A program made the translations under genes and the position numbers. 60,942 bases of DNA, taken from assembly GCA_950073835.1 (NCBI GenBank), contig CATMRP010000007.1, positions 1 to 60,942 on the forward strand. Direction: 5' to 3'. The notes beneath the pieces were generated by a model. The model did not search any database, was not told the DNA's origin, and worked only from the letters and a program-made list of their open reading frames with translations. Each line of letters starts with the position of its first letter. The stretch's first letter is position 1. Positions 7,936 to 49,043 of the stretch are shown here, piece by piece. This DNA is from an uncultured Alteromonadaceae bacterium. GTDB taxonomy: Bacteria; Pseudomonadota; Gammaproteobacteria; Enterobacterales; Alteromonadaceae.

Positions 7936-10900
7936 TGCTTGTTAGCAATGAATGGCGTTTATATGTGCGCCAGCCTCTGGTGTGGTTATGCGCACTGGGC
8001 TTGCCCGGGCTGTCGGTGTTATTGGTGCAGGGGCTGACCGTTGCCGATTTGCAGCTGGCGAAGCGCCTGACCATGTTAAATATTACGGTAGTTATGCTGG
8101 CGCTGCCGGTGGTGGTGGCCGCGTTAACGCCTCCGTTGCTGCAGCGTGACAGGCTCCACACTATGCAGGAGCTCATTAGTGCGACCAGAACGAGTCAGTT
8201 TACCCGGCGGCTTAACCGGTTTGTGGCTTTTTTGAGTCTGGTTGCCGTGATCTGTTTTTGCGGCTCGGTGCTGCAGCTACTAATGCTGAGTCAGCATCCG
8301 CTGTTCGACGCCAGCGTTATTTACACGGCGCTCAAAAACAGCTTGTTTATTGTAGCCCCGGCGTGTTTTTTGTATTGCGCAGCTGCGTTACTGATTGCCC
8401 AGCGGGTCAACAGCGCGCTGCCGGTGTATGCCTTTTTCGCCCTGCTGTGGATAGGTTATGTGATGCTGGCGTCTGTGACCGGCTCGCCTGTTCTGGCCGG
8501 CAGTAGCATTATCCATCCGTCACTTTACGAGGCAATGCTGGTGGCTGACCCTTTGGGGTTTACGGCGATTTTTGCCCAGTTCACTGGCGATCAGACAAAC
8601 TGGTCTGCCAACCCGACTATCGTTTTGAATCGACTGGCCTGGCTCACGCTTAGCGCACTGCTGGTGTGGTTAGCGTTGAACGCTCGAAGTATGTTGAATA
8701 GAAACGCTAAACGCGTGCTCTGGTGGCGGTTAAGGAAAACAGCCATGCCTGATAACCAGATGAAAATGCCTGCGGCCATTACCCATCATCCCTTTGCTAC
8801 CTTACTTGTGAGCGCTACCAAAGTGTTACTGCTTAACCGGGTGATGCTGTTCGTCATGGCACTTTACGCTGGCGCGATTTTCTCAGAAGTGCTGGCCGCT
8901 ATTGATTATGCCGAACCCCATTCAGTCCTCACACCGCTAAGTATTGATGCACTCAATCGCGTTGTGTGGGATATGTTACCCTTTGCCGGGTGTGTGCTCA
9001 TGGCACTCTGGAGCTGGCAGCTGGGCTGGCAAAATCTGCGTAATGGTGCCGCAGAAATGCTAGCTGCTACGCCAGTAACTAACATTCAGCTGGTCATGGC
9101 ACAGGCCAGCGCCTTGTGCTTAGCCTGCCTTGTTTTGCTGGGTATAACGGCCGTTGCCGTTGTAGTTGCCCAGCTACTGGTTGGCAGCCAGATAGAAGCC
9201 GGTATCTATCTCCGTATGCTAACAATGACCGGCCTGCCTGTACTGCTGTTTGGCTGGCTTTGCCTTGCCCTTCATCATGTTATGCGCAGTGCGTTGGTAG
9301 CTGGGGGGCTTTGCCTGCTGTTGCTGATGGTAAAATTTACGCCGTTACTTTCCCTGGCCGGTATTGCCCACCCATTGCTCGATATTGCCGGTACGCCGTT
9401 GCAGCCAGCCGACTATTTAATCGGCTTCTCCCGCAGTGAACAGACCTTTTGGCCTTATCTTTTTATGTGGTCGATCGTCGTTGTTGGCGCACTGGTGCTG
9501 GCGATAAACAAAACGCACCGCGGGGCAGGTTTTGTGCTGCAATCATGGCGCTCCCTGTCACGCTCCGGTTGGCTTGCTGTTGGTGTGGCAGTCGTGACGC
9601 TGGTGGGTTTTCATCTGGCTCTTGAGCAGGAGCGGCCTTACATGACGCCGGACGCCCGATATGCCCTACGGGCCGAATATGAAAAGCAATACGGCCACTG
9701 GGAGAGCCGGGTTCAGCCGGTTGTCACACACATCGATACACAGGTGGATTTTTTCCCGCACAAGCGCCTGGCAACGCTTAAACTCACACTGCACCTTAAA
9801 AACCTTAGTGGGGAGTCGATTAAAGAAGTGTTAGTGGGCAGTTACCCGGGGTTTAAACCCGAAATGTTAACGCTTAGCGCCGGGCAATTAACGTCTCATA
9901 ACCAGAGGTTACAGCAATCTGTGTTTCAACTGGATTCGCCGTTACTGCCAGGCAAAACGGTTACCTTACAAGCAGAAGTCGTGGTAAAAGGCGCGCGCAG
10001 ATGGTTACCTTCAGGGCATCAGGTGCTACTACCGGAATTCAGTTATTTACGCGGTATTCCTTTGTTGCCCAATATTGGGTTTAACCGGCAGTACACGCTA
10101 CGTGATGCAGTGCGCAGGGAAGAATTTGGCTTAGCGGCGCTGGATATGCCGTTACCCAGTTCCTTTATGGATGCGGCCCCGGTCACAACAGTGCAATCGA
10201 CCCCGGTTACTCTTCGTAGTGTTGTCTCGTCGCCGGTTTCGCACACCGTGCATACCCAGGGGCAAATTGTTAACCAGTGGTTGGCTTCTAATCGTCGCTA
10301 CACAGAGTTTGCCACCGCAGAGCCTGTGCGAAATATTCCGGTCTGGCTGGCCACAGTGCAAACGAGCACTTCCCATCGCGTTACGGCGGGTGAGCGCTCT
10401 GTGGATATCAATCTGACCGGCCTGACGCGCAATCTCAAAAGTGGCTCACAGGCAAGCGCTCAGCAAGTTCATTTACAGGCCGTTACCGACACCCTTGAAT
10501 GGTTTTCAGCTCAGCTTACGCCCTATCCCTACAAGCAGCTTACCTTGCTGTTTACGCCGGAATTCGGTCCCAGTGGTTATGCGCTGCCACAGGTTATTTT
10601 AATGTCTCATCGCCTGGCGGTTCGGGCGCGTCCTGCCGACGATGCCGGTTTCGATCAACGCTATCGGCGTATGGCGCATGAGGTGGCTCATCAGTGGTTT
10701 GGGCACCAGATTGGCTATGGTGTTCAGGCTGATGGTTCGTTTTTAATTGAGTCGCTGGCGAAATATGCCGAGCTGGTGCTTATTGAGCAGCGCTTTGGTA
10801 AAGCAGCAATGCAATCGCTGGTGGACTATGAGCGGCAGCGCTATCAGCACGCCTTGCGGGGCAGGTTAACTGCCACCAGAGCCATTGTTGATGCCTACAG

Positions 10901-38241: not shown

Positions 38242-39078
38242 ATGGATAACGGTGTTGGTAATAAGTACCTTTGGCTAATTGAGTTACTCGCGTTTTGGCA
38301 AGGGCGAGTAAATAGTCAGGACCTGTGTAATGCATATGGTATTAGTACTACTCAGGCTAAAAAGTACATTTCAGACTACAAAATTATCTACCCATTCAAT
38401 ATTTTCTACAATAAAAGTGCTAAAGCGCATTTTCCCGATAGTGAGCTCAAATGTGAGTTAATCAGTGGTGATGTAAATGAGTATCTGGACTGGCTGAATA
38501 CTCAAAATGATCACGCTGAAGTGTTCTACAACAGTATTACCCATGCCGAATTGCGGTTACCACCAAGGCATACCTCCCCTGAAATAATGCGTGGACTGGT
38601 CACTGCAATAAGGCATCAGCGCCGGATAGATGTGGAATACCTTTCGCTAAGTAAAACAACGGCTGAAGGGAGAGTAATACAGCCACATACTTTTGTTAAA
38701 ACAGGTTTGCGCTGGCATTTACGCGGATTTTGCGAGTATCGCTGTGAATATCGTGACTTTGTTTTAAGTCGGTTCAGAGGAGCCCCTTTTTTGTTAGATG
38801 CGGCTACCCACACCCGAACAAAGGATGAGGGCTGGAACACCAATATAACAATACGACTTCAACCCGATCCCCGTTTTACACCGGACCAAAAAACCATTAT
38901 TGAGCAGGATTACCAAATGCAAAATGGTGAGCTCCTAATAATAACTAAAGCCGCTCTGGCTCAATATGTTATTCAGGGCATGCAGGTACGTACCGATTCC
39001 CTGGCAAAAACACCTCAACAGCAACAGTTAGTATTGGTAAACGAAGATGACCTTAAACCCTGGTTATTTGCCAGCTAA
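38242..39078 (+). CDS. WYL-domain regulator, BrxR/CapW-like, adjacent to CRISPR-Cas
   Basis: 278 residues. An N-terminal winged helix (YLWLIELLAFWQGRVNSQDL, then YGISTTQAKKYISDY) is followed by the WYL domain at about 130-200 (RRIDVEYLSLSKTTAEGRVI, HTFVKTGLRWHLRGFCEYR, FVLSRFRG) and a WCX-like C-terminal part. The layout, size and the INPFNIFYNKSAKAHFPDSE-like segment after the helix-turn-helix resemble BrxR/CapW, repressors that control BREX and CBASS phage-defence operons. It points towards cas3, about 140 bases before the first reading frame of the cas operon. It is a good candidate for the switch that controls the type I-C locus; the effector bound by the WYL domain is unknown. Confidence 0.82.
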   Translation: MDNGVGNKYLWLIELLAFWQGRVNSQDLCNAYGISTTQAKKYISDYKIIYPFNIFYNKSAKAHFPDSELKCELISGDVNEYLDWLNTQNDHAEVFYNSITHAELRLPPRHTSPEIMRGLVTAIRHQRRIDVEYLSLSKTTAEGRVIQPHTFVKTGLRWHLRGFCEYRCEYRDFVLSRFRGAPFLLDAATHTRTKDEGWNTNITIRLQPDPRFTPDQKTIIEQDYQMQNGELLIITKAALAQYVIQGMQVRTDSLAKTPQQQQLVLVNEDDLKPWLFAS

Positions 39079-39145
39079 CTCTGAGAATAATGCTGAATCG
39101 GTCAAGTTGGTTTACTGGTTAAATGTCAGGGATTGTGTGATGTGC

Positions 39146-39166
39146 TTTCAAGTGAAATGCTTGAAA
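39146..39166. promoter_or_regulatory. Inverted repeat upstream of the cas operon, candidate operator
   Basis: TTTCAAG and CTTGAAA are perfect inverted arms of 7 bases around a 7-base spacer. The right arm continues into TTGAAAACAGAG, also found with one extra A upstream of the WYL gene. The site lies in the 144-base gap before the first frame of the cas operon, a position suited to repressor binding. Confidence 0.5.
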
Positions 39167-39222
39167 ACAGAGCTCTATTAGAGACGTTTGCATTTTACTT
39201 TGAATAAAAGTTAAGGAGCCAT

Positions 39223-39324
39223 ATGAATATCTTTGGCGATACTAAGTACGGTTCCATAATGCAGTCATTTTGTATATGGCTATTGGGCGTTGTGGCCAGC
39301 ACTGTTATTTTGAGTGTTCAGTGA
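39223..39324 (+). CDS. 33-residue membrane-peptide ORF overlapping the cas3 start
   Basis: An ATG at 39223 follows AAGGAG (39213-39218) at good spacing, the best ribosome site in this part of the operon. The product starts MNIFGDTKYG and then has one hydrophobic run of ~17 residues beginning at residue 16 (FCIWLLGVVASTVILSV), enough for one membrane helix. The stop TGA at 39322-39324 overlaps the ATG of cas3 (TGATG). cas3 has no good ribosome site of its own, so its translation is probably coupled to this frame. It could be a leader peptide or a functional small membrane protein. I know no family for it. Confidence 0.6.
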   Translation: MNIFGDTKYGSIMQSFCIWLLGVVASTVILSVQ

Positions 39325-41618
39325 TGATTAAGTATTTTGCACATTCCGGAAATAAAAGTGATAAATCGGATTGGCAATCATTAAAGGATCATTTGGCAAT
39401 AGTTGCAGAGATCTCAGAACATAATGGAAGGTATTTCAAGGCTAATAAATTGTGTTACCTAGCTGGTCTTTTGCATGATTTAGGTAAGTACACCGCTGAA
39501 TTTCAAAGGAGACTTGAAGGTAATCCCCAAAAAGTAGACCATGCAACAGCGGGCGCCAAAATCGCTGCTGAATTGCTTCGTGACAAGCATTTTAATCAAT
39601 TTCCATTCTATAAGTTCGTCGCCTACGCCATTGCTGGTCATCATGCTGGGTTGGCTAATGGTTCTGCTGAAGGAGATGATAGAAGAGCGCTTAAAGACCG
39701 AATGAACCTAAAATTCGGTAAAGAATTACCGGTTCTGGATCATGAAGTTTGGAAAGCAGAACTCGAAATCCCTCCAATTGAATCACTATTACCAAAAATT
39801 GCAGTCAATCCCGATGCTGAGCGACAAGGTTTTCAATTTGCTTTTTTAATTCGTATGATCTTTTCGTGTTTGGTTGATGCGGATTATATTGATACCGACA
39901 AGTTTTATAGAAGCTTAAAGAATAAAGCCTTGCTTAGAGGAAAATATCCTCAACTGTCAGAATTAAAAAAGCGGTTGGATCAAACATTGACTGACATGTT
40001 GGTCAAATGTGATCAAGCTAAAAAGGTCAACCAGCTACGCAAAGAAATTCTTGATAATGCCCGTTATAAGTCGAAACTCTCTCCTGGGTTATTTACCTTA
40101 ACCGTTCCAACTGGAGGCGGAAAAACGCTAAGTTCTATGGCATTTGCCTTAGATCATGCTCTGGCACATGGTATGCGAAGAGTAATTTATGTAATTCCGT
40201 TTACCAGCATAATTGAACAGAACGCAAAAGTGTTCCGCGAAGCCTTTGGTGATTTAGGTGACGCCGCAGTTTTAGAGCATCACAGCAATTTTGATGATCG
40301 TAATATCCTGGGTAAAGAGGGGGCCGAAGAAACTCGCGATAAGCTTAAGTTAGCAATGGAAAACTGGGATATGCCAGTGGTCGTGACTACGGCTGTTCAG
40401 TTTTTTGAATCCCTGTTTGCAGATCGACCTTCGTGCTGCCGAAAGTTACACAACATTTCAGGTAGCGTGATTATTCTGGATGAAGCGCAAACACTACCGC
40501 TCAAATTCCTTCGTCCGACAATGGCTGTAATTGATGAATTGGCGCGTAACTACAATTGTTCTGTAGTGCTTTGTACCGCGACTCAACCGGCATTGTGTGA
40601 GCCAGACTTTGATAAGGGTTTCCGGGAAGAAGATGTGCGTGAAATTGCGCCAGATCCAGAAAGACTTTTTGAAGAACTCAGCTTGGTGAGCGTCTCTCAT
40701 CTGGGGGAGTTAACTGATGATGAATTGTTGTCTCGCATTCAAACCAATGAACAAATTCTCACCATTGTAAATAATCGCCGTCACGCTCAATCGCTCTTTC
40801 AAACCCTTAAAAAGCAGCAAACAGAAGGTGTTTATCACCTAACAACTTTGATGTGCGCTGCTCATCGTACTGAAACACTGGAATTAGTTCGTGAACGTTT
40901 AAAGCCGGAAAATGCACTTCCATGTCGGGTGATCTCAACGTCACTGATAGAGGCAGGTGTTGATGTCAGCTTTCCGTGCGTTATGCGTGCTGAGGCAGGT
41001 TTGGATTCTATCGCGCAAGCTGCCGGTCGCTGTAACCGTGAACGAATCTGGAACAAAGATGACAGTCATGTTTGGATTTTTAAATCTCCCGACTGGCCTA
41101 TTCCCCCTGAATTAAAAGGGCTTTCGGCAGATATGCGAGCGGTGCTGCGTAAAGAGCATGGCAACTTATTAGATCAAGCCGCTATGAAGGATTATTTTTC
41201 CAATGTGCATTGGCGTAAAGGAGAAGAACTCGACCAGAAGCAGATATTAAAAGCCTGTCGGGTTGGAGCATCAAAATTAGATTTTCCATTTCAGAAAATA
41301 GCTAAGGATTTTCGAATTATAGACAGTGTTATGCAGCCTGTTTTTATCCCCTATGACGATGCATCCCGTAGCCTATTAGAACAGCTCAAAACAACAGATG
41401 ATGTAAGTGGCACTTTGAGGAAGCTACAGCCCTATGTTGTACAGATTCCGCAAGGTGGTTTTGACAGCTTACAGGTGGCAAAAGTAATTCAACCGCTGGC
41501 ACCTCATCGTTTCGCAGAGCAATTTTGGGGGTTAATAAACATGGATATATATGATTCAGAGTTTGGGCTAAGTTGGTCAGAGCCAGATTTTATTAAAGCC
41601 GAAAATTTGGTGTTGTAA
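39324..41618 (+). CDS. cas3: CRISPR-associated helicase/nuclease Cas3 (type I-C)
   Basis: 764 residues. The HD nuclease domain comes first (KYFAHS at the start, LLHDLGK with HD at residues 51-52, AIAGHHAGL). The SF2 helicase follows: motif I TVPTGGGKTLSSM near residue 262, DEAQ box VIILDEAQTLP near 386, TATQPAL (motif III) and AQAAGRCNRE (motif VI). Cas3 is recruited to the R-loop by Cascade and degrades target DNA. The frame is open 54 bases further upstream to a TTG at 39270, but family N-termini begin like M-KYFAHS, so 39324 is chosen. First large gene of a complete I-C operon. Confidence 0.96.
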   Translation: MIKYFAHSGNKSDKSDWQSLKDHLAIVAEISEHNGRYFKANKLCYLAGLLHDLGKYTAEFQRRLEGNPQKVDHATAGAKIAAELLRDKHFNQFPFYKFVAYAIAGHHAGLANGSAEGDDRRALKDRMNLKFGKELPVLDHEVWKAELEIPPIESLLPKIAVNPDAERQGFQFAFLIRMIFSCLVDADYIDTDKFYRSLKNKALLRGKYPQLSELKKRLDQTLTDMLVKCDQAKKVNQLRKEILDNARYKSKLSPGLFTLTVPTGGGKTLSSMAFALDHALAHGMRRVIYVIPFTSIIEQNAKVFREAFGDLGDAAVLEHHSNFDDRNILGKEGAEETRDKLKLAMENWDMPVVVTTAVQFFESLFADRPSCCRKLHNISGSVIILDEAQTLPLKFLRPTMAVIDELARNYNCSVVLCTATQPALCEPDFDKGFREEDVREIAPDPERLFEELSLVSVSHLGELTDDELLSRIQTNEQILTIVNNRRHAQSLFQTLKKQQTEGVYHLTTLMCAAHRTETLELVRERLKPENALPCRVISTSLIEAGVDVSFPCVMRAEAGLDSIAQAAGRCNRERIWNKDDSHVWIFKSPDWPIPPELKGLSADMRAVLRKEHGNLLDQAAMKDYFSNVHWRKGEELDQKQILKACRVGASKLDFPFQKIAKDFRIIDSVMQPVFIPYDDASRSLLEQLKTTDDVSGTLRKLQPYVVQIPQGGFDSLQVAKVIQPLAPHRFAEQFWGLINMDIYDSEFGLSWSEPDFIKAENLVL

Positions 41619-41633
41619 TTTTTATTGGAGAGA

Positions 41634-41655
41634 TCGCCCCTCTTAAAAGGGGATT
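41634..41655 (+). repeat. CRISPR-repeat-like hairpin between cas3 and cas5
   Basis: TCGCCCCTC (41634-41642) is identical to bases 2-10 of the array repeat. It is followed by TTAAA and then AGGGG (41648-41652), which is the right arm of the repeat's stem. The stem is CCCCT/AGGGG with a 6-base loop, against CGCCCCT/AGGGGCG with a 5-base loop in the array. The GTGGATTGAAAC 3' end of the repeat is missing, so it is a partial repeat. It lies in the 74-base gap between cas3 and cas5 on the coding strand. A plain mRNA hairpin is the alternative. Confidence 0.5.
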
Positions 41656-41692: not shown

Positions 41693-42382
41693 ATGGCTTA
41701 TGGTATTAAATTGCATGTATGGGGAGACTATGCCTGCTTTACCCGACCAGAGATGAAGGTTGAGCGTGTTTCTTATGATGTCATCACACCTTCGGCTGCC
41801 AGGGGCATTTTGGAAGCTATTCATTGGAAGCCTGCGATTTGTTGGGTGATTGATCGCATTCATGTACTCAAACCTGTTCGTTTTGAGTCAATTCGGCGCA
41901 ATGAATTAGGAGATTGTAAAATCTCTCAAACCACCGTTTCGGGCGCAATAAAAAGAAAATCCACTTCAGGTTTAGGATTCTTAATTGATAATCCATATAA
42001 ACCAAATAATCGACAGCAAAGAGCGACTACTTTACTGCGTGACGTAGGCTATGTAATTGAAGCGCATTTTGAACTCACCGATAAAGCAGGTGCTGAAGAT
42101 AGCGTTGGCAAGCATCTGGATATTTTTAACCGCAGGGCGCGCAAAGGTCAATTTTTTCATCAGCCTTGTTTAGGTAACCGGGAATTCCCTGCGTATTTTT
42201 CGTTAATTGAATCCGAAGCTGATTTTCCTCCGTCGGAATTGGTACTCGACAACAAAGATCTAGGCTGGATGTTACATGATATTGATTTTTCAAAAGATGC
42301 AGAGCCAAGATTTTTTAGAGCTGAACTCACTAATGGTGTGGTCGAGGTGCCACCGTTTTACTCTCCGGAGGTGGTACAGTGA
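41693..42382 (+). CDS. cas5c: Cas5 (type I-C, pre-crRNA processing nuclease Cas5d)
   Basis: 229 residues from the ATG at 41693, which follows AAGGAGAG; a GTG at 41669 would add eight residues that include the ribosome site. The N-terminal RAMP fold begins YGIKLHVWGDYACFTRPEMK, then VERVSYDVITPSAARGILEA. In type I-C, which lacks Cas6, Cas5 cuts the precursor RNA within the repeat and stays on the 5' handle. It overlaps cas8c by four bases (GTGA). Confidence 0.95.
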   Translation: MAYGIKLHVWGDYACFTRPEMKVERVSYDVITPSAARGILEAIHWKPAICWVIDRIHVLKPVRFESIRRNELGDCKISQTTVSGAIKRKSTSGLGFLIDNPYKPNNRQQRATTLLRDVGYVIEAHFELTDKAGAEDSVGKHLDIFNRRARKGQFFHQPCLGNREFPAYFSLIESEADFPPSELVLDNKDLGWMLHDIDFSKDAEPRFFRAELTNGVVEVPPFYSPEVVQ

Positions 42383-44187
42383 TTTTATCTGCCTTAACTC
42401 AATATTACGAGCGTCTCATTACGACGAGCAATGGGGCGGTTCCCTCTTTTGGTTTTAGTGAAGAAAAAATCGGCTATATTCTGGTCCTTTCTGAACGAGG
42501 GGAATTAGTTGATTTAGTACCAAATTTATCCGAAGAAAAAAAGCCAAAACCTAGATTACTCAATGTACCGCGCCCAGAAAAGAGAACATCGGGGATCAAA
42601 CCGAATTTTCTATGGGATAAAACCGCTTATGTATTGGGCGTTGGTTTACCAAAGGATAAAAAAAGTGAAGCGTTATTTGAATTGTCCATGCCAACCTTTG
42701 AAGCATTTCGGGATTTACATGTGTCGCTCTTCAAGAATGCCGAAGATAAAGGATTAAAGGCTTTAGTTCTGTTTTTGAAAAATTGGAAGCCTGAGAACTT
42801 TGCCGAATCTGTACTTTCACCGGATGTACTGGATGCTAACGTGGTGTTTCAGTTAGATGGTCTGCGTAAGTATGTCCATGAATGCTTAGAGGCAAAGACT
42901 ATTTGGAGAGCGCAGCTCCAATCGGATGATGCCAAGGAAGCAATGTGTTTAATTACTGGAGAACAAGCACCTATTTCCAGATTACATCCGGCGATTAAAG
43001 GTGTTTCAGGTGGACAGAGTTCCGGGGTTTCTATTGTCTCTTTTAATAAAGAGTCGTTCGAATCTTTTGGAAAAGGGCAAGGAGACAATGCGCCAGTTTC
43101 TGAGCAAGCAGCCTTTGCTTACACCACTGCACTAAATTATTTGCTGCGAAAAGAGAATGATCAGGTCATCAGTTTAGGCGATACCACTTTAGTATTTTGG
43201 GCATTAGCAGACTATGAACGAAAAGCCAAAAGTGCTGAAACGTTTTTTATGACAGGCTTTAATCCGCCGTCGCCCACAGATGAAAGTGAAGCAAAGGCAC
43301 TGGCTTCCGAATTGGAAAAATTAGCGAAGGGGCGTCCTTTATCGGAGATTTCACCCGATCTGGAGCCAAACACCCAGTTTTACATTCTGGGACTGGCTCC
43401 AAACGCTGCGCGGCTGTCCATCCGTTTCTGGTTACAAACCGATCTGGGACATATCCAACAAAGATTTGCAGAGCACTTTCAAGATATAGCACTAAATCCC
43501 TTGCCATGGAAAACAGCACCATCTTCATATCGGCTTCTTTTAGAACTTATTCCGACCAGGTACGAAAGCAATGGAAATAAAAAAAAGAAGGACATTAATG
43601 ATGCTCCAGCACATATAGCTGGTGAATTGATGCGTGCCATTTTAACCGGGCAACGTTACCCCAGAGCGATATTGACACAGTTACTTTCGCGGTTTAGGGC
43701 TGATGGCGATATCAGTGGCTTACGTGTTGCCATGGTGAAATCGGTATTACAAAGAGAATTCAGATTATTAGGAAAAGAGGAGATTTCTATGAGTTTAGAT
43801 GGATCAAACGATAACCCCGCTTACCTGTTAGGCAGGTTGTTCGCGGTGTTGGAGAATATTCAACGACTTGCCCTGGGAGACAAGGTTAATGCAACGATTA
43901 CAGACAAATATTACGCGTCTGCATCTACGGTTCCTTATTCCGTTTACCCCAGATTACTTTCAGGTAGTAAGCACCACCTGTCCAGAATTCGAAAGGACAA
44001 GCCTGGTTTAGCTTATTCGATTGAAAGAGAGCTAGGGGCAATAATGGGAATTTTGCCAACAGAGTTTCCACGCCACTTTTCAATTGAAAATCAAGGTCGC
44101 TTTTCAATTGGTTATTACCATCAAAAAAATGCACGTTTTGCACAATCAGTTGAATCCAATGAATTAATAATAGAAGGGAATGAATAA
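42379..44187 (+). CDS. cas8c: Cas8c/Csd1, large subunit of type I-C Cascade
   Basis: 602 residues, normal for Csd1. It starts at a GTG overlapping the cas5 stop. Typical stretches are [10 protein letters not shown] near the start, [37 protein letters not shown], and [17 protein letters not shown]. The large subunit recognises the PAM and recruits Cas3. In I-C systems an internal start commonly also yields a small Cas11c subunit from the 3' part of this gene; an ATG at 43789 ([15 protein letters not shown]) preceded by GAGGAG is a good candidate. Confidence 0.95.
43789..44187 (+). CDS. Candidate internal Cas11c start within cas8c
   Basis: An in-frame ATG at 43789 is preceded by GAGGAG about 8 bases upstream (AAAGAGGAGATTTCT) and would give a 132-residue protein starting [20 protein letters not shown]. 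In type I-C systems the 3' end of cas8c is known to be translated separately as the small subunit Cas11c. The strong ribosome site inside a coding region supports this; it has not been tested for this sequence. Confidence 0.6.
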
Positions 44188-45056
44188 TGACTATCCAGAA
44201 TCGCTATGAATTTGTTTACTTTTTTGATGTAACAAATGGTAATCCAAACGGTGACCCTGATGCTGGTAACATGCCGCGCCTTGACCCAGAGTCCAGTAAA
44301 GGCCTGGTAACGGATGTTAGCTTAAAGCGCAAAATCCGAAACTATATTCAGTTAAGTGAATATAGCTCGCCGGGTTATGACATTTATGTACAAGAAAAAA
44401 GTGTTCTGAACCAGCAAAATCAAAAAGCTTATGACGCTCTTGAAATTAAACCTGAATCAAAAAAATTACCAAAAGACCAATCCAAAGCAAAAGAAGTAAC
44501 AGATTGGATGTGCGCAAACTTTTTTGATGTACGGGCTTTTGGTGCAGTTATGACTACTGAAATCAACTCGGGACAGGTGCGCGGCCCATTACAATTGGCA
44601 TTCGCTAAATCTATTGATCCGATTATTCCTCTAGAAATTTCTATTACACGAATGGCGGTTACTAATGAAAAAGATTTGGAAAAAGAAAGAACTATGGGGC
44701 GTAAGCATATTGTTCCTTACGGTTTATACCGGGTCCATGGTTTTGTTTCTTCAAAATTGGCCGAAAAAACTGGGTTCACCGATAGTGATTTAGACAAGGT
44801 CTGGAAATCACTCGAAATGATGTTTGAACACGATCATTCCGCTGCACGAGGAGAAATGGCCGGACGGAAATTGATAGTATTTAAGCATGAAAATGCTCTT
44901 GGGAATGCGCCTGCGCATAAATTGTTTGAACGAGTTACCGTCGATCGAGTTAAGGGGGAGAGTGGAACACCAGCTGCTGAATTTTCAGATTATAAAATCC
45001 AACTTAATTCAGATGGCTTAGTTGAACTTGGCGTTGAGGCTCTGGAAATTTTCTAA
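44187..45056 (+). CDS. cas7c: Cas7 (Csd2), backbone subunit of type I-C Cascade
   Basis: 289 residues, full length. [20 protein letters not shown] and [11 protein letters not shown] are the hallmark of Csd2. DVRAFGAVM and [18 protein letters not shown] follow, then [15 protein letters not shown]. Cas7 forms the filament along the crRNA. Its ATG overlaps the cas8c stop by one base (TAATG). Confidence 0.97.
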
Positions 45057-45059
45057 GTA

Positions 45060-45689
45060 ATGGACGATCTCAAACTCGTCCCACTATCCGCCTTACAACA
45101 CTTTGCCTTTTGCCCACGCCAATGTGCGTTAATTCATAACGAGCAGGTGTGGGCCGACAACTGGCATACGGCCAAAGGCATTTTGTTGCATAAACGGGTG
45201 GATAGTGGCGATCCCGAAAGTCGCAAAGACGTACGTTTTGAGCGTGCCGTGCAGGTTTGTGCAGAACAGCTTGGAGTAATAGGAAAGCTTGACCTGGTGG
45301 AGAAGAACCTCTTTACCGGGCAATTGACACCAGTTGAATATAAAAAAGGCAAAAACAAACCTGGCAATTGGGACAAGGTGCAACTTTGTGCACAGGCTTT
45401 GTGTTTGGAAGAGATGACTGAGCAGCCAATTGATGTGGGTTATTTATGGTACTGGCAAACTCGCCGGCGGGAGTCTGTAGAGTTCTCGGCTTCACTTAGG
45501 CTGAATACTCAACACATAATCGAAGAGGTACGGCATTTGATAAATTCTGATCTCTTGCCCAAGCCGGTATATGAAAAAAAGTGCCAGGCATGTTCGTTGA
45601 TCGATATTTGTAATCCTCAACATGTTGCAAAGGACAATAGTGCTGATTACATCGCAGCATTGTTTGCTATGAACAGGGACATTGAATGA
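45060..45689 (+). CDS. cas4: Cas4 adaptation exonuclease
   Basis: 209 residues. The RecB-like nuclease has LTPVEYKKGK and VQLCAQALCLEEM (motif III and QhxxY-like). Cys residues for the iron-sulfur cluster lie at the N-terminus (FAFCPRQCALIHNEQVW) and C-terminus (CQACSLIDIC). Cas4 trims prespacers and fixes PAM and orientation with Cas1-Cas2. It lies 3 bases after cas7 and overlaps cas1. Confidence 0.95.
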   Translation: MDDLKLVPLSALQHFAFCPRQCALIHNEQVWADNWHTAKGILLHKRVDSGDPESRKDVRFERAVQVCAEQLGVIGKLDLVEKNLFTGQLTPVEYKKGKNKPGNWDKVQLCAQALCLEEMTEQPIDVGYLWYWQTRRRESVEFSASLRLNTQHIIEEVRHLINSDLLPKPVYEKKCQACSLIDICNPQHVAKDNSADYIAALFAMNRDIE

Positions 45690-46705
45690 AGAAGCTGCAA
45701 AATAGCCTGTATTTAACCAGAGATAACTTGTATGCCCATAAAGAGCGTGAGGCTATTGTCATTAAACAAGAAAATGAAACTCTTTTAAAATTACCGATTC
45801 ATTCCATCAGCAACATTTACTGTTTTGGGCAGACCCGAGTATCCCCCGGATTGATGGCACACTGTGCTGAAAACGATGTCAATTTGGCCTACTTCGATCT
45901 TTTTGGAAGATATCAGGCCCGCATGGTGGGGCGTAAGTCTGGCAACGTTTTACTGCGCCGGGCTCAATATAGAGCCAGTGACAATGCACAATTAGAAATT
46001 GCCCGTAATATTATTGCCGCCAAAATCCAGAATTGTCGCGGCTTACTGCAACGACAGCTAAGAAATCATGGGCAGAATGCAACTATTGCTCAAGTAGTAA
46101 CTAAGCTCAAGTTTTCAGTAGAACAAACTAAACAAGCCAATTCGTTAGATAAACTTCGCGGTGTTGAAGGGGATGCCGCGGCGCAATATTTTTCAGTGTT
46201 TCAGCAGCTAATTAAAGCCGGTTTACGTGAAAAATTTGTTTTTTCAAGGCGAACACGCAGGCCTCCCAGGGATGCTGTTAATGCGATGTTGTCTTTAGTT
46301 TACAGTGTCATAGGCCAGGATGTTAGCGGTGCCTTACATGCGGTTGGGCTTGATCCGCAAGTGGGGTTTCTGCATGCAGACCGGCCGGGTCGAGACAGCT
46401 TGGCTCAGGATATATTGGAAGAATTACGTGCTTATTTGGCCGACAGACTGGTCCTTAGTTTGATAAATCGGCAACAAATAAAAATCACCGACTTTGAAAA
46501 TGAAGTAAGTGGCGCGGTTAAGATGAAAGATGATGCACGGAAAGTTCTGTTTGCAGCATTACAGCAACGTAAACAAGAAAGTATTGTTCATCCGTTTCTT
46601 AATGAAAAAGTTGAAATAGGCTTGCTGCCTCACATTCAGGCAATGTTGCTTGCAAGACATCTACGTGGTGACTTGCAACATTATCCGCCCTTCTTGGCTA
46701 AGTGA
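45686..46705 (+). CDS. cas1: Cas1 integrase
   Basis: 339 residues. The C-terminal alpha-helical domain keeps the metal ligands: Glu in LRGVEGDAAAQYF, His in VGFLHADRPGRDSLAQDILE and Asp/Glu in the same segment. The N-terminal beta domain starts LQNSLYLTRDNLYAHKE. It overlaps cas4 by 4 bases and is followed by cas2. Confidence 0.97.
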   Translation: MKKLQNSLYLTRDNLYAHKEREAIVIKQENETLLKLPIHSISNIYCFGQTRVSPGLMAHCAENDVNLAYFDLFGRYQARMVGRKSGNVLLRRAQYRASDNAQLEIARNIIAAKIQNCRGLLQRQLRNHGQNATIAQVVTKLKFSVEQTKQANSLDKLRGVEGDAAAQYFSVFQQLIKAGLREKFVFSRRTRRPPRDAVNAMLSLVYSVIGQDVSGALHAVGLDPQVGFLHADRPGRDSLAQDILEELRAYLADRLVLSLINRQQIKITDFENEVSGAVKMKDDARKVLFAALQQRKQESIVHPFLNEKVEIGLLPHIQAMLLARHLRGDLQHYPPFLAK

Positions 46706-47189: not shown

Positions 47190-49043
47190 GTCGCCCCTCA
47201 CGCAGGGGCGTGGATTGAAACGCTATCCTGATGGCAAAGATTACTGGTTCCCGAGTCGCCCCTCACGCAGGGGCGTGGATTGAAACGCGGATGATATCGA
47301 CGTACTTGCTTAGTCCTGAGGTCGCCCCTCACGCAGGGGCGTGGATTGAAACAACAACGTTCAGCATTCGATTTACGTCGGTAGGGTCGCCCCTCACGCA
47401 GGGGCGTGGATTGAAACTGATAACAAGCCTATATTTTCAGGCTCCGATATGTCGCCCCTCACGCAGGGGCGTGGATTGAAACTCCACGTTGCAGATCACT
47501 GGCAGGATGGCGGTAGTCGCCCCTCACGCAGGGGCGTGGATTGAAACCGGCGTATTGCAACCCGTATCGCCAGCCGTATTGTCGCCCCTCACGCAGGGGC
47601 GTGGATTGAAACTATTAAATGTATTACCGGTGAGCTGCGCATCGACGTCGCCCCTCACGCAGGGGCGTGGATTGAAACTTTAAAAGGTCTGCAATGGCCT
47701 GCTTTGTGGCGGTCGCCCCTCACGCAGGGGCGTGGATTGAAACCGCTTGCTCAGCAGAACCTACTGGCTGGCAATAGTCGCCCCTCACGCAGGGGCGTGG
47801 ATTGAAACCTGTGAATTAGTGTCAGAAAATGACTATGTGTAGTCGCCCCTCACGCAGGGGCGTGGATTGAAACCGGGTACTTTAATCCATTTGAATGGGA
47901 TGGCGGGTCGCCCCTCACGCAGGGGCGTGGATTGAAACACGCTATTGCCCCACTATGGCTACAAACGGCGAGTCGCCCCTCACGCAGGGGCGTGGATTGA
48001 AACAACCAATCCGGCATTTTAAGCCCTGCACCCTGGGTCGCCCCTCACGCAGGGGCGTGGATTGAAACCTGACTGAAGTCACACACATCAGTAATGCGAA
48101 CGTCGCCCCTCACGCAGGGGCGTGGATTGAAACAAAATATCGTTTACCGTGTAAACAAATAATAGTGTCGCCCCTCACGCAGGGGCGTGGATTGAAACGG
48201 ATAAGGCACGACACCGGCAACGCTTTACTTAGTCGCCCCTCACGCAGGGGCGTGGATTGAAACTCAGCCTCCGCGCATCACCCTTTATGGTCCGGCGTCG
48301 CCCCTCACGCAGGGGCGTGGATTGAAACATCCTTGGCATAGGGCGGGCGGATCCAGTTAGTGTCGCCCCTCACGCAGGGGCGTGGATTGAAACAAGCAGC
48401 GTAGCATCAGTAAAACTCACCCAGGGCGTCGCCCCTCACGCAGGGGCGTGGATTGAAACCGAACCCCAGCGCGGCGGATTTGGTGTTGCAGTGTCGCCCC
48501 TCACGCAGGGGCGTGGATTGAAACATCACTAAACGATACACTAAGGATTGACATGAGTCGCCCCTCACGCAGGGGCGTGGATTGAAACACGGTAACGACA
48601 GAAGGTACGGTGTGGGGTGATGGTCGCCCCTCACGCAGGGGCGTGGATTGAAACCCTGGCTCCGGCAGTGTCACCCGCGTACTCGAGTCGCCCCTCACGC
48701 AGGGGCGTGGATTGAAACGATACTATCTCCGCGCTTTCCCCCGAGAAATCGGTCGCCCCTCACGCAGGGGCGTGGATTGAAACCAATTTCCGGTTGCCAG
48801 GATCCAGTCGCCGGACGTCGCCCCTCACGCAGGGGCGTGGATTGAAACACTATCAGTTGAGCTGAATAACATAGGTGAATCGTCGCCCCTCACGCAGGGG
48901 CGTGGATTGAAACATTATGTCTCTGAGCAGCGGGCCAATGAGAAAAGTCGCCCCTCACGCAGGGGCGTGGATTGAAACGCCTACGTCAAGGGCAAAGCCT
49001 CCTACGACCCCGTCGCCCCTCACGCAGGGGCGTGGATTGAAAC
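47190..49043 (+). CRISPR. Type I-C CRISPR array, 29 identical 32-nt repeats
   Basis: The repeat begins GTCGCCCCTCACGC and ends GTGGATTGAAAC, with a perfect CGCCCCT/AGGGGCG stem and a CACGC loop. I located 29 copies, at 47190, 47255, 47321, 47386, 47451, 47516, 47581, 47647 and so on to 49012, and saw no base change in any. There are 28 spacers between them: mostly 33 nt, four of 34 and two of 32. I saw no duplicated spacer. A 34-nt spacer (49044-49077) and a degenerate repeat follow. Orientation: the leader and cas2 side is 5', and the decayed repeat marks the old end. Type I-C by cas genes and repeat form. The uniform repeats suggest an intact, possibly active array. Confidence 0.99.

What the first reader, a model, noticed from the sequence alone, without database searches (positions are those of the whole stretch)
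39223..39324. Unannotated 33-residue membrane-peptide ORF coupled to cas3
ATG at 39223 has AAGGAG at the right distance, and its TGA overlaps the cas3 ATG (TGATG). cas3 lacks a ribosome site of its own. The peptide is mostly one hydrophobic helix. So the first product of the cas operon may be a tiny membrane protein, or a leader that meters Cas3, the nuclease whose level must be kept low. Frame, ribosome site and overlap are read from the sequence; the function is inferred.
Basis: partly seen in the sequence, partly recalled or inferred. Interest (0 to 1): 0.7.

Follow-up and report, generated by a model that had tools for sequence, protein, structure and literature searches.

The report
Orphan leader ORF ahead of cas3
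A well-formed 33-codon reading frame sits just before the first gene of a bacterial CRISPR operon and probably helps ribosomes reach that gene, but no close relative found has it, so a role for the tiny peptide itself remains unproven.

Summary
In detail: ATG 39223, TAAGGAG 4 nt before it, 33 codons, TGA overlapping the cas3 ATG. It is not a routine chance ORF: 2 of 272 genes sampled here have such an upstream frame, the other a spurious reading at cas5. The peptide is unusually hydrophobic and models as one helix. It has no homologue: the five closest Cas3 loci found (70-77%) lack it, as do 23 loci with related WYL regulators. But unrelated hydrophobic frames overlap other cas3 starts: 6 of 128 loci, this one included, 0.80 expected; two sister loci (L115, L119) keep a fast-diverging 34-codon frame. 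The locus looks like a join of a WYL regulator/operator module and I-C cas genes of another lineage; the ORF lies at the join, its ATG just beyond where related operons start their first gene. Best reading: a lineage-specific leader that carries the operon's strong ribosome site and hands ribosomes to cas3. Membrane function is possible; CreTA was tested and not met. In passing: probable CreTA modules in the cas3-cas5 gap of 18 I-C loci.

The parts
38242..39078 (+). WYL-domain regulator, upstream of the cas operon
   Evidence: Pfam WYL 1.7e-12; relatives of 41-53% identity precede cas operons of several subtypes
39099..39135 (+). Putative WYL operator/promoter element (GTTTACTGGTTAAATGTCAGGGATTG core); in some relatives it includes the dyad GTAAAC-N3-GTTTAC
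   Evidence: Motif found in 22 of 23 related WYL loci L175-L197 (the pattern was written from these same sequences, so the count is descriptive)
39150..39200 (+). Inverted repeat / hairpin in the untranslated leader (AAGTGAAATGC...GCATTTTACTT)
   Evidence: RNA fold; function unknown
39212..39218 (+). Ribosome site TAAGGAG of the small ORF
   Evidence: Sequence; rarity and spacing
39223..39324 (+). 33-codon leader ORF, predicted single hydrophobic helix, no homologue found
   Evidence: no hit in plasmids, only E = 9 hits in phages, best other hit E 1.1 in the loci fetched
39322..39326 (+). TGATG stop/start overlap between the small ORF and cas3
39324..41618 (+). cas3 (type I-C), no ribosome site of 4 nt or more
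   Evidence: PADLOC Cas3c 1.4e-223
41693..46705 (+). Rest of the I-C operon: cas5c, cas8c, cas7c, cas4, cas1
47190..49043 (+). CRISPR array, 29 exact repeats, 28 spacers

Best explanation
The ORF is a lineage-specific translated leader at the join between a WYL-regulator/operator module and type I-C cas genes of another lineage. Ribosomes load at TAAGGAG, translate 33 codons, stop at the TGA and restart on the overlapping cas3 ATG, so cas3 expression depends at least partly on the leader. The peptide would probably enter the membrane if made, but most likely has little function of its own. Shown: frame, ribosome site, overlap, hydrophobicity, a regulator unlike that of the closest cas3 loci, absence from the relatives found. 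Inferred: that it is translated, that cas3 is reached by reinitiation, that the modules were joined here, and that the peptide is dispensable.
For: A strong ribosome site is rare here (9 of 207 genes) and this type of upstream frame is almost absent (2 of 272, one spurious). cas3 itself has none. Possible 1-nt and 4-nt overlaps occur at 21 and 16 of 133 adjacent gene pairs, and at three other junctions of this operon. Operator-to-ATG is 112 nt for the small ORF and 213 nt for cas3 (coordinates); in 16 of the 20 related loci that the script could measure the first long gene starts at 76-111 nt. The five closest Cas3 loci carry a WYL regulator with an added WCX domain, barely similar to this one (24% over 72 residues in L031). 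Relatives of this WYL precede I-F cas1 (L179, L205), Cas3c (L182), Cas3e (L186, L192, L193) or Cas3g (L059) genes.
Against: The 4-nt spacing is short. Synonymous codon use says nothing either way. Lack of a ribosome site at cas3 is common, so cas3 may start unaided. The RNA 39150-39400 folds better than most shuffles (z -2.44, 5 of 200 as good), but the cas3 start itself is not unusually closed. Four of 20 measured operons start outside 76-111 nt. In L115 and L119 a similar frame is kept while its sequence diverges, which hints that such peptides can matter. No expression data exist here.
Confidence: 0.47

Rival explanations
1. It is not translated to any purpose: a chance frame in a longer-than-usual leader, with cas3 initiated without a ribosome site.
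For: None of the relatives found has it; 82 of 272 genes here and 43 of 126 cas3 loci also lack a ribosome site; no codon signal; one other gene of 110 here has a hydrophobic frame at its start.
Against: A 7-nt ribosome site, stop/start overlap and hydrophobicity together are rare.
Confidence: 0.24
2. It is a functional tiny membrane protein, the first product of the operon, for example an accessory or membrane-active effector switched on with the cas genes by the WYL regulator.
For: Hydrophobic beyond chance, one helix in the model. Hydrophobic frames overlapping cas3 starts number 6 of 128 against 0.80 expected. In the sister loci L115 and L119 a 34-codon hydrophobic frame keeps its start, length and 8-nt overlap with cas3 although its DNA is 50% identical and cas3 93%. 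Other extra genes use the slot: HIRAN in L171 and L205, a 45-aa hydrophobic ORF in L191.
Against: No homologue found. The other frames are unrelated in sequence; L115 and L119 count as one event; the remaining ones (L011, L088, L154) start with GTG and look weak. In this genome's own control the rate is 2 of 110, this ORF included, so the excess over ordinary genes is modest. The L191 ORF has no visible ribosome site.
Confidence: 0.22
3. It is a CreT-like toxin of a CRISPR-regulated toxin-antitoxin pair.
For: Size and hydrophobicity resemble small ORFs beside ectopic repeats in other I-C loci.
Against: No repeat-like sequence in the WYL-cas3 gap (193 of 200 and 167 of 200 shuffles score as high); the only handle-like matches in the window outside the array have 2 mismatches and lie at 10.6 and 28.4-28.6 kb; no spacer matches the gap better than four shuffles of it; no guide/target pair with a handle in 37.9-47.15 kb.
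Confidence: 0.03
4. It is the truncated 5' end of a former first gene left behind when the I-C cas genes replaced an older cas operon behind this WYL promoter.
For: Regulator/cas mismatch and position of the ORF.
Against: It matches no first gene of the related WYL operons or any other locus fetched (best other tblastn hit E 1.1).
Confidence: 0.04

Closest known systems
Translationally coupled short leader ORFs (termination-reinitiation over TGATG/ATGA; general knowledge, recalled)
   Same: Strong ribosome site on the leader, stop overlapping the next start, downstream gene without its own site
   Different: No homologue and unusually hydrophobic; coupling not demonstrated
CreTA / CrePA CRISPR-regulated toxin modules (PMC8501985, PMC9458426, PMC12737573, PMC12055562: passages seen)
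   Same: Tiny ORF inside a cas locus; the Citrobacter rodentium I-E toxin is a 96-bp ORF between cas3 and casA (PMC12055562, passage)
   Different: No repeat-derived antitoxin RNA or PAM-flanked target at this ORF
Hydrophobic 34-codon frames overlapping cas3 in two Burkholderiales I-C loci
   Same: Length, hydrophobicity, overlap with the cas3 start, no ectopic repeat found beside them
   Different: No sequence similarity, 8-nt overlap, weak or no ribosome site, other neighbours
Cas11c, the small subunit made from an internal start in cas8c of I-C (recalled, not looked up)
   Same: A short product hidden in an I-C operon
   Different: Inside cas8c, soluble and conserved
HIRAN gene between WYL and cas genes (L171, L205)
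   Same: Same slot in the operon; in L205 it directly abuts cas1
   Different: A 136-152 aa gene with a recognised domain

Membership tests
Translationally coupled leader ORF | Stop of the leader overlaps or lies close to the next start | tested here: met
   TGATG at 39322-39326
Translationally coupled leader ORF | Leader has the better ribosome site | tested here: met
   7-nt site against none of 4 nt or more
Translationally coupled leader ORF | Downstream start hidden by structure until the leader is translated (frequent, not obligatory) | tested here: not met
   43rd percentile of 242 starts
Translationally coupled leader ORF | Downstream translation falls when the leader is not translated | not testable with these tools
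   Needs reporter fusions
Conserved small membrane protein | Predicted transmembrane helix | tested here: met
   Max KD 2.39 over 17 residues, helix 3-31 in a single-sequence model
Conserved small membrane protein | Homologues under amino-acid constraint | tested here: not met
   None in 72,556 plasmid records at E up to 10, only E = 9 phage hits, none in loci fetched, absent at the 5 closest cas3 loci
CreTA | Repeat-like sequence beside the toxin gene | tested here: not met
CreTA | Spacer-like guide matching a PAM-flanked site at the toxin promoter (positions 1-5, 7-11) | tested here: not met
   Three pairs without a handle (best 6 of 12 bases) in 37.9-47.15 kb
Type I-C CRISPR-Cas (the operon) | cas3, cas5c, cas8c, cas7c, cas4, cas1 and an array | tested here: met

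The most novel reading that the evidence does not exclude
Type I-C operons repeatedly acquire, as their first cistron, a tiny fast-evolving membrane peptide translated in step with Cas3 (this ORF, L115, L119): a protein counterpart of CreTA whose switch is the operon's own promoter (here a WYL regulator) instead of a guide RNA.
Probability: 0.09. Interest if true: 0.7.

Novelty: new member of a known kind. Interest (0 to 1): 0.32.

Why it matters
If cas3 is reached only through a leader, its level is tied to one ribosome site that can be tested with a single mutation. The comparison also suggests that regulator/promoter and effector modules of CRISPR operons recombine, and that the slot before the first cas gene collects small extra ORFs. 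The probable I-C CreTA modules found in passing bear on why cells keep CRISPR-Cas.

Tried and rejected
Rejected: CreT-like toxin; an Rfam element in 37.9-41.8 kb (no match at E up to 0.1); structural masking of the cas3 start; a second copy of the intergenic DNA in the genome (only a 24-base match, E 0.58); homology to the first genes of related WYL operons. A -1 frameshift fusion into cas3 was considered by eye: I saw no slippery heptamer in the zero frame.

Led nowhere: viral contigs with Cas3 of the window or of L119 (no relative); further relatives of L119 in plasmids (none above 47%) or in 114 genomes (one at 56%); alignment A2 used wrong flank stretches and is not used; paper searches on coupling at cas3, leaders and small membrane proteins in cas operons listed nothing on this.

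Mended after the report was first held back: the survey demanded a ribosome site of 5 nt and so missed L115; one search repeats it without that demand. Subtype labels of neighbours were then tested. The membrane-protein rival rose from 0.18 to 0.22, the novel case from 0.07 to 0.09, the best explanation fell from 0.50 to 0.47 and chance from 0.25 to 0.24 because of L115 and L119.

Rows dropped: searches left out L058, L022, L032 and L092 (duplicates or fragments), loci without a candidate start (L056, L138, L144, L151), loci whose Cas3 match does not begin near the N-terminus (L007, L015, L036, L161, never entered) and, loci with under 160 bases upstream. One search left out nine duplicate loci and gaps with Cas3 identity under 40.9%; one search had already left out loci with cas3 and cas5 on different strands or gaps outside -50 to 1500. 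Gene starts are mechanical (long ORFs in 348,942 bases, the window plus 15 stretches of its genome), not curated.

Full report
What is there. The window holds a type I-C locus: a WYL regulator (38242-39078), cas3, cas5c, cas8c, cas7c, cas4, cas1 and an array of 29 exact repeats. In the 245-base gap between the regulator and cas3 lies the 33-codon ORF, exactly as described.

Is it more than chance? I took 272 ORFs of at least 120 codons from 348,942 bases of this genome. Two had an upstream ATG frame of 15-60 codons with a ribosome site of 6 nt or more and a stop within 8 nt of a possible start: this one, and an out-of-frame reading at the cas5 start. Strong ribosome sites are rare (9 of 207 genes with a 6-nt match). 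The peptide's hydrophobicity is reached by 188 of 4014 or 27 of 1960 random open frames, depending on the composition used. Against this, spacing is short (4 of 93 sites have 4 nt), synonymous codon use is uninformative, and a main gene without a ribosome site is ordinary here (82 of 272).

Relatives of cas3. Cas3 of 70-77% identity was found in five genomes of one other family: L031 and L224-L227 (5 of 62 genomes; L227 has an internal stop). None has the ORF. In L224-L227 cas3 starts within about 80 bases of the regulator's end. In L031 a HIRAN gene lies between (read from L171), cas3 has its own AAGGAG, and an unrelated, barely hydrophobic 24-codon frame overlaps its start. The regulators of all five have WYL plus WCX domains, unlike the window's. 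In the window's genus, one other genome of 59 had a match at E up to 1e-60, a distant one at 38%.

Survey of cas3 starts. Among 126 loci (other subtypes included) 12 had a frame of 15-80 codons with a ribosome site of 5 nt or more ending near cas3; this window's is the only one with a 7-nt site. Without the ribosome-site demand, 6 of 128 loci have a frame of 20-70 codons with KD of at least 1.8 ending within -12 to +16 of a cas3 start; 0.80 are expected from shuffles. They are the window, L115, L119, and three GTG-started, weaker-looking ones (L011, L088, L154). In this genome's own genes with non-coding DNA upstream the figure is 2 of 110, this ORF included. L115 and L119 are sister Burkholderiales loci: cas3 93% identical over 2000 bases, the 34-codon frame 50% (7 of 34 residues), the 100 bases before it 62%, with start, length and an 8-nt overlap with cas3 kept. 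No ectopic repeat was found beside them. So small hydrophobic leaders at cas3 may be a recurring theme, but this rests on one pair found after the fact.

Relatives of the regulator. Searching 295 genomes of the family gave 65 with a match at E up to 1e-40, the own genome included. In the 23 best other loci (L175-L197) the gene is followed by a shared element in 22 (pattern written from the same sequences). What follows was tested for some: I-F Cas1 (L179, and L205, which is L196 extended), Cas3c (L182), Cas3e (L186, L192, L193) and, outside the family, Cas3g (L059); a Cas1 in L204, which is L191 extended. Others were assigned by eye; L175, L176, L177 and L197 have other genes next. None has the window's ORF. 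In L182 and L185, where a 48% WYL precedes a Cas3c-type or similar cas3, that gene has its own AAGGAG. L191 has an unrelated 45-aa hydrophobic ORF without a visible ribosome site. The window's regulator and cas genes thus have different closest relatives and meet in the stretch that holds the ORF. From the shared element to the first gene of at least 200 codons is 76-111 nt in 16 of the 20 relatives measured (exceptions 29, 158, 197, 201; the 29 and 201 rows look like mis-called starts; L176 within the range is not a cas gene). For the window it is 112 nt to the ORF and 213 nt to cas3 by coordinates.

How it most likely works. Transcription starts near the shared element, ribosomes bind TAAGGAG, make the short peptide, stop at TGA and restart on the overlapping ATG of cas3. 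The same overlap style occurs at cas5/cas8, cas8/cas7 and cas4/cas1. All of this is inferred from anatomy. That the leader keeps Cas3 low has no specific support: the cas3 start is about as accessible as the median start, although the RNA 39150-39400 folds better than most shuffles (z -2.44).

Peptide function. A one-sequence model gives a helix from residue 3 to 31. No homologue was found in plasmids, phages (25 records at E = 9) or the loci fetched (best other hit E 1.1). Without homologues, selection on the peptide cannot be tested.

CreTA test. Because many I-C relatives carry small hydrophobic ORFs beside ectopic repeats in the cas3-cas5 gap, I tested this explanation. It fails for the window: no repeat-like sequence in the WYL-cas3 gap, no handle nearby and no spacer match above chance, no guide/target pair with a handle across 37.9-47.15 kb.

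Side finding. Of 76 cas3-cas5 gaps examined (Cas3 at least 41%, the window included), 19 contain a repeat handle with at most 2 mismatches of 12 (1.40 expected from shuffles). With PAM TTC, TTT or CTC allowed, the sequence after the handle matches a PAM-flanked site in the same gap better than 97% of shuffles or more in 18 of 19 (14 of them better than all 200; L143 fails); the PAM is TTC in 17 of the 18, TTT in L120; 13 of 19 match fully at positions 1-5 and 7-11. PMC8501985 describes the same 1-5/7-11 pairing with a TTC PAM for a CreTA of a I-B system (passage seen). Ten of the 19 have a small hydrophobic ORF with a ribosome-like 4-mer by a loose rule, eight of these on the cas strand. The string I-C has zero occurrences in the main texts of PMC12737573, PMC9458426 and PMC8501985. 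A search for CreTA, type I-C, CRISPR and cas5 (at least three terms) listed 12 of 96 papers, one of them holding both CreTA and type I-C, once each, an anti-CRISPR review seen as a listing only (PMC13131331). The founding 2021 Science paper was not seen, so I do not claim this is unpublished.

Literature. Searches. Nothing on a leader ORF at cas3 appeared in the listings or in the passages seen of six papers (PMC12737573, PMC9458426, PMC8501985, PMC12055562, PMC12231136, PMC8616872). Small membrane proteins are reported beside defective I-E variants in Streptomyces (PMC12231136, passage).

Verdict. The feature is real as sequence and probably translated, but without a homologue. Its most likely role is ordinary, a coupled leader; the L115/L119 pair keeps the membrane-peptide reading alive.

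Noticed in passing
cas3-cas5 gap of L088, L033, L095, L004, L097, L104, L106, L105, L116, L120, L125, L123, L127, L135, L132, L144, L142, L151: Probable CreTA modules in type I-C loci: ectopic repeat handle followed by a guide-like stretch matching a PAM-flanked (TTC; TTT in L120) site in the same gap (18 of 19 handles), several with a small hydrophobic ORF.
   Followed up: partly
L115 and L119, just upstream of cas3 (ATG 121 bases before the conserved YYAH codons): A 34-codon hydrophobic frame overlapping the cas3 start by 8 nt; its sequence diverges far faster than cas3 but start, length and overlap are kept.
   Followed up: partly
L041, 125 bases upstream of cas3: A repeat handle with a guide-like stretch matching a TTC-flanked site nearby (0 of 100 shuffles as good): possible CreTA ahead of cas3.
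   Followed up: no
window 41634-41652; upstream of cas5 in L031, L224, L225, L226, L227: A small repeat-like hairpin (GTCGCC...GGCGTGGAT in L225 and L227, longer in L224, degenerate in the window and L226) sits just before the cas5 ribosome site in all six. It might be bound or cut by Cas5c, separating cas3 from the rest of the message; untested.
   Followed up: partly
window 39099-39135; L175-L197 except L191: A WYL regulator family shared by cas operons of several subtypes, with a common downstream element that in some loci includes the dyad GTAAAC-N3-GTTTAC, likely its operator.
   Followed up: partly
L171 (complement 9084-9542), L205 3341-3751: HIRAN-domain genes whose products start with a basic, hydrophobic, signal-like stretch (MNRRKLLKSL..., MERRKVLKLL...) lie between a WYL gene and the first cas gene.
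   Followed up: partly
L191 / L204, between WYL and cas1: An unrelated 45-aa, very hydrophobic ORF in the same slot, without a visible ribosome site.
   Followed up: no
cas3-cas5 gap of L098, L102, L107, L129, L130, L131, L153: A recurring roughly 100-aa frame with motifs like VIYxITxPNGKIYVG (GIY-YIG-like by eye, not tested) between cas3 and cas5.
   Followed up: no
window 39150-39200: A long inverted repeat in the untranslated leader just before the ribosome site; no second copy found in the genome.
   Followed up: no
L009, L012: A separate 75-codon frame resembling a cas3 N-terminus overlaps the main cas3 start, suggesting a partial duplication or frame break.
   Followed up: no
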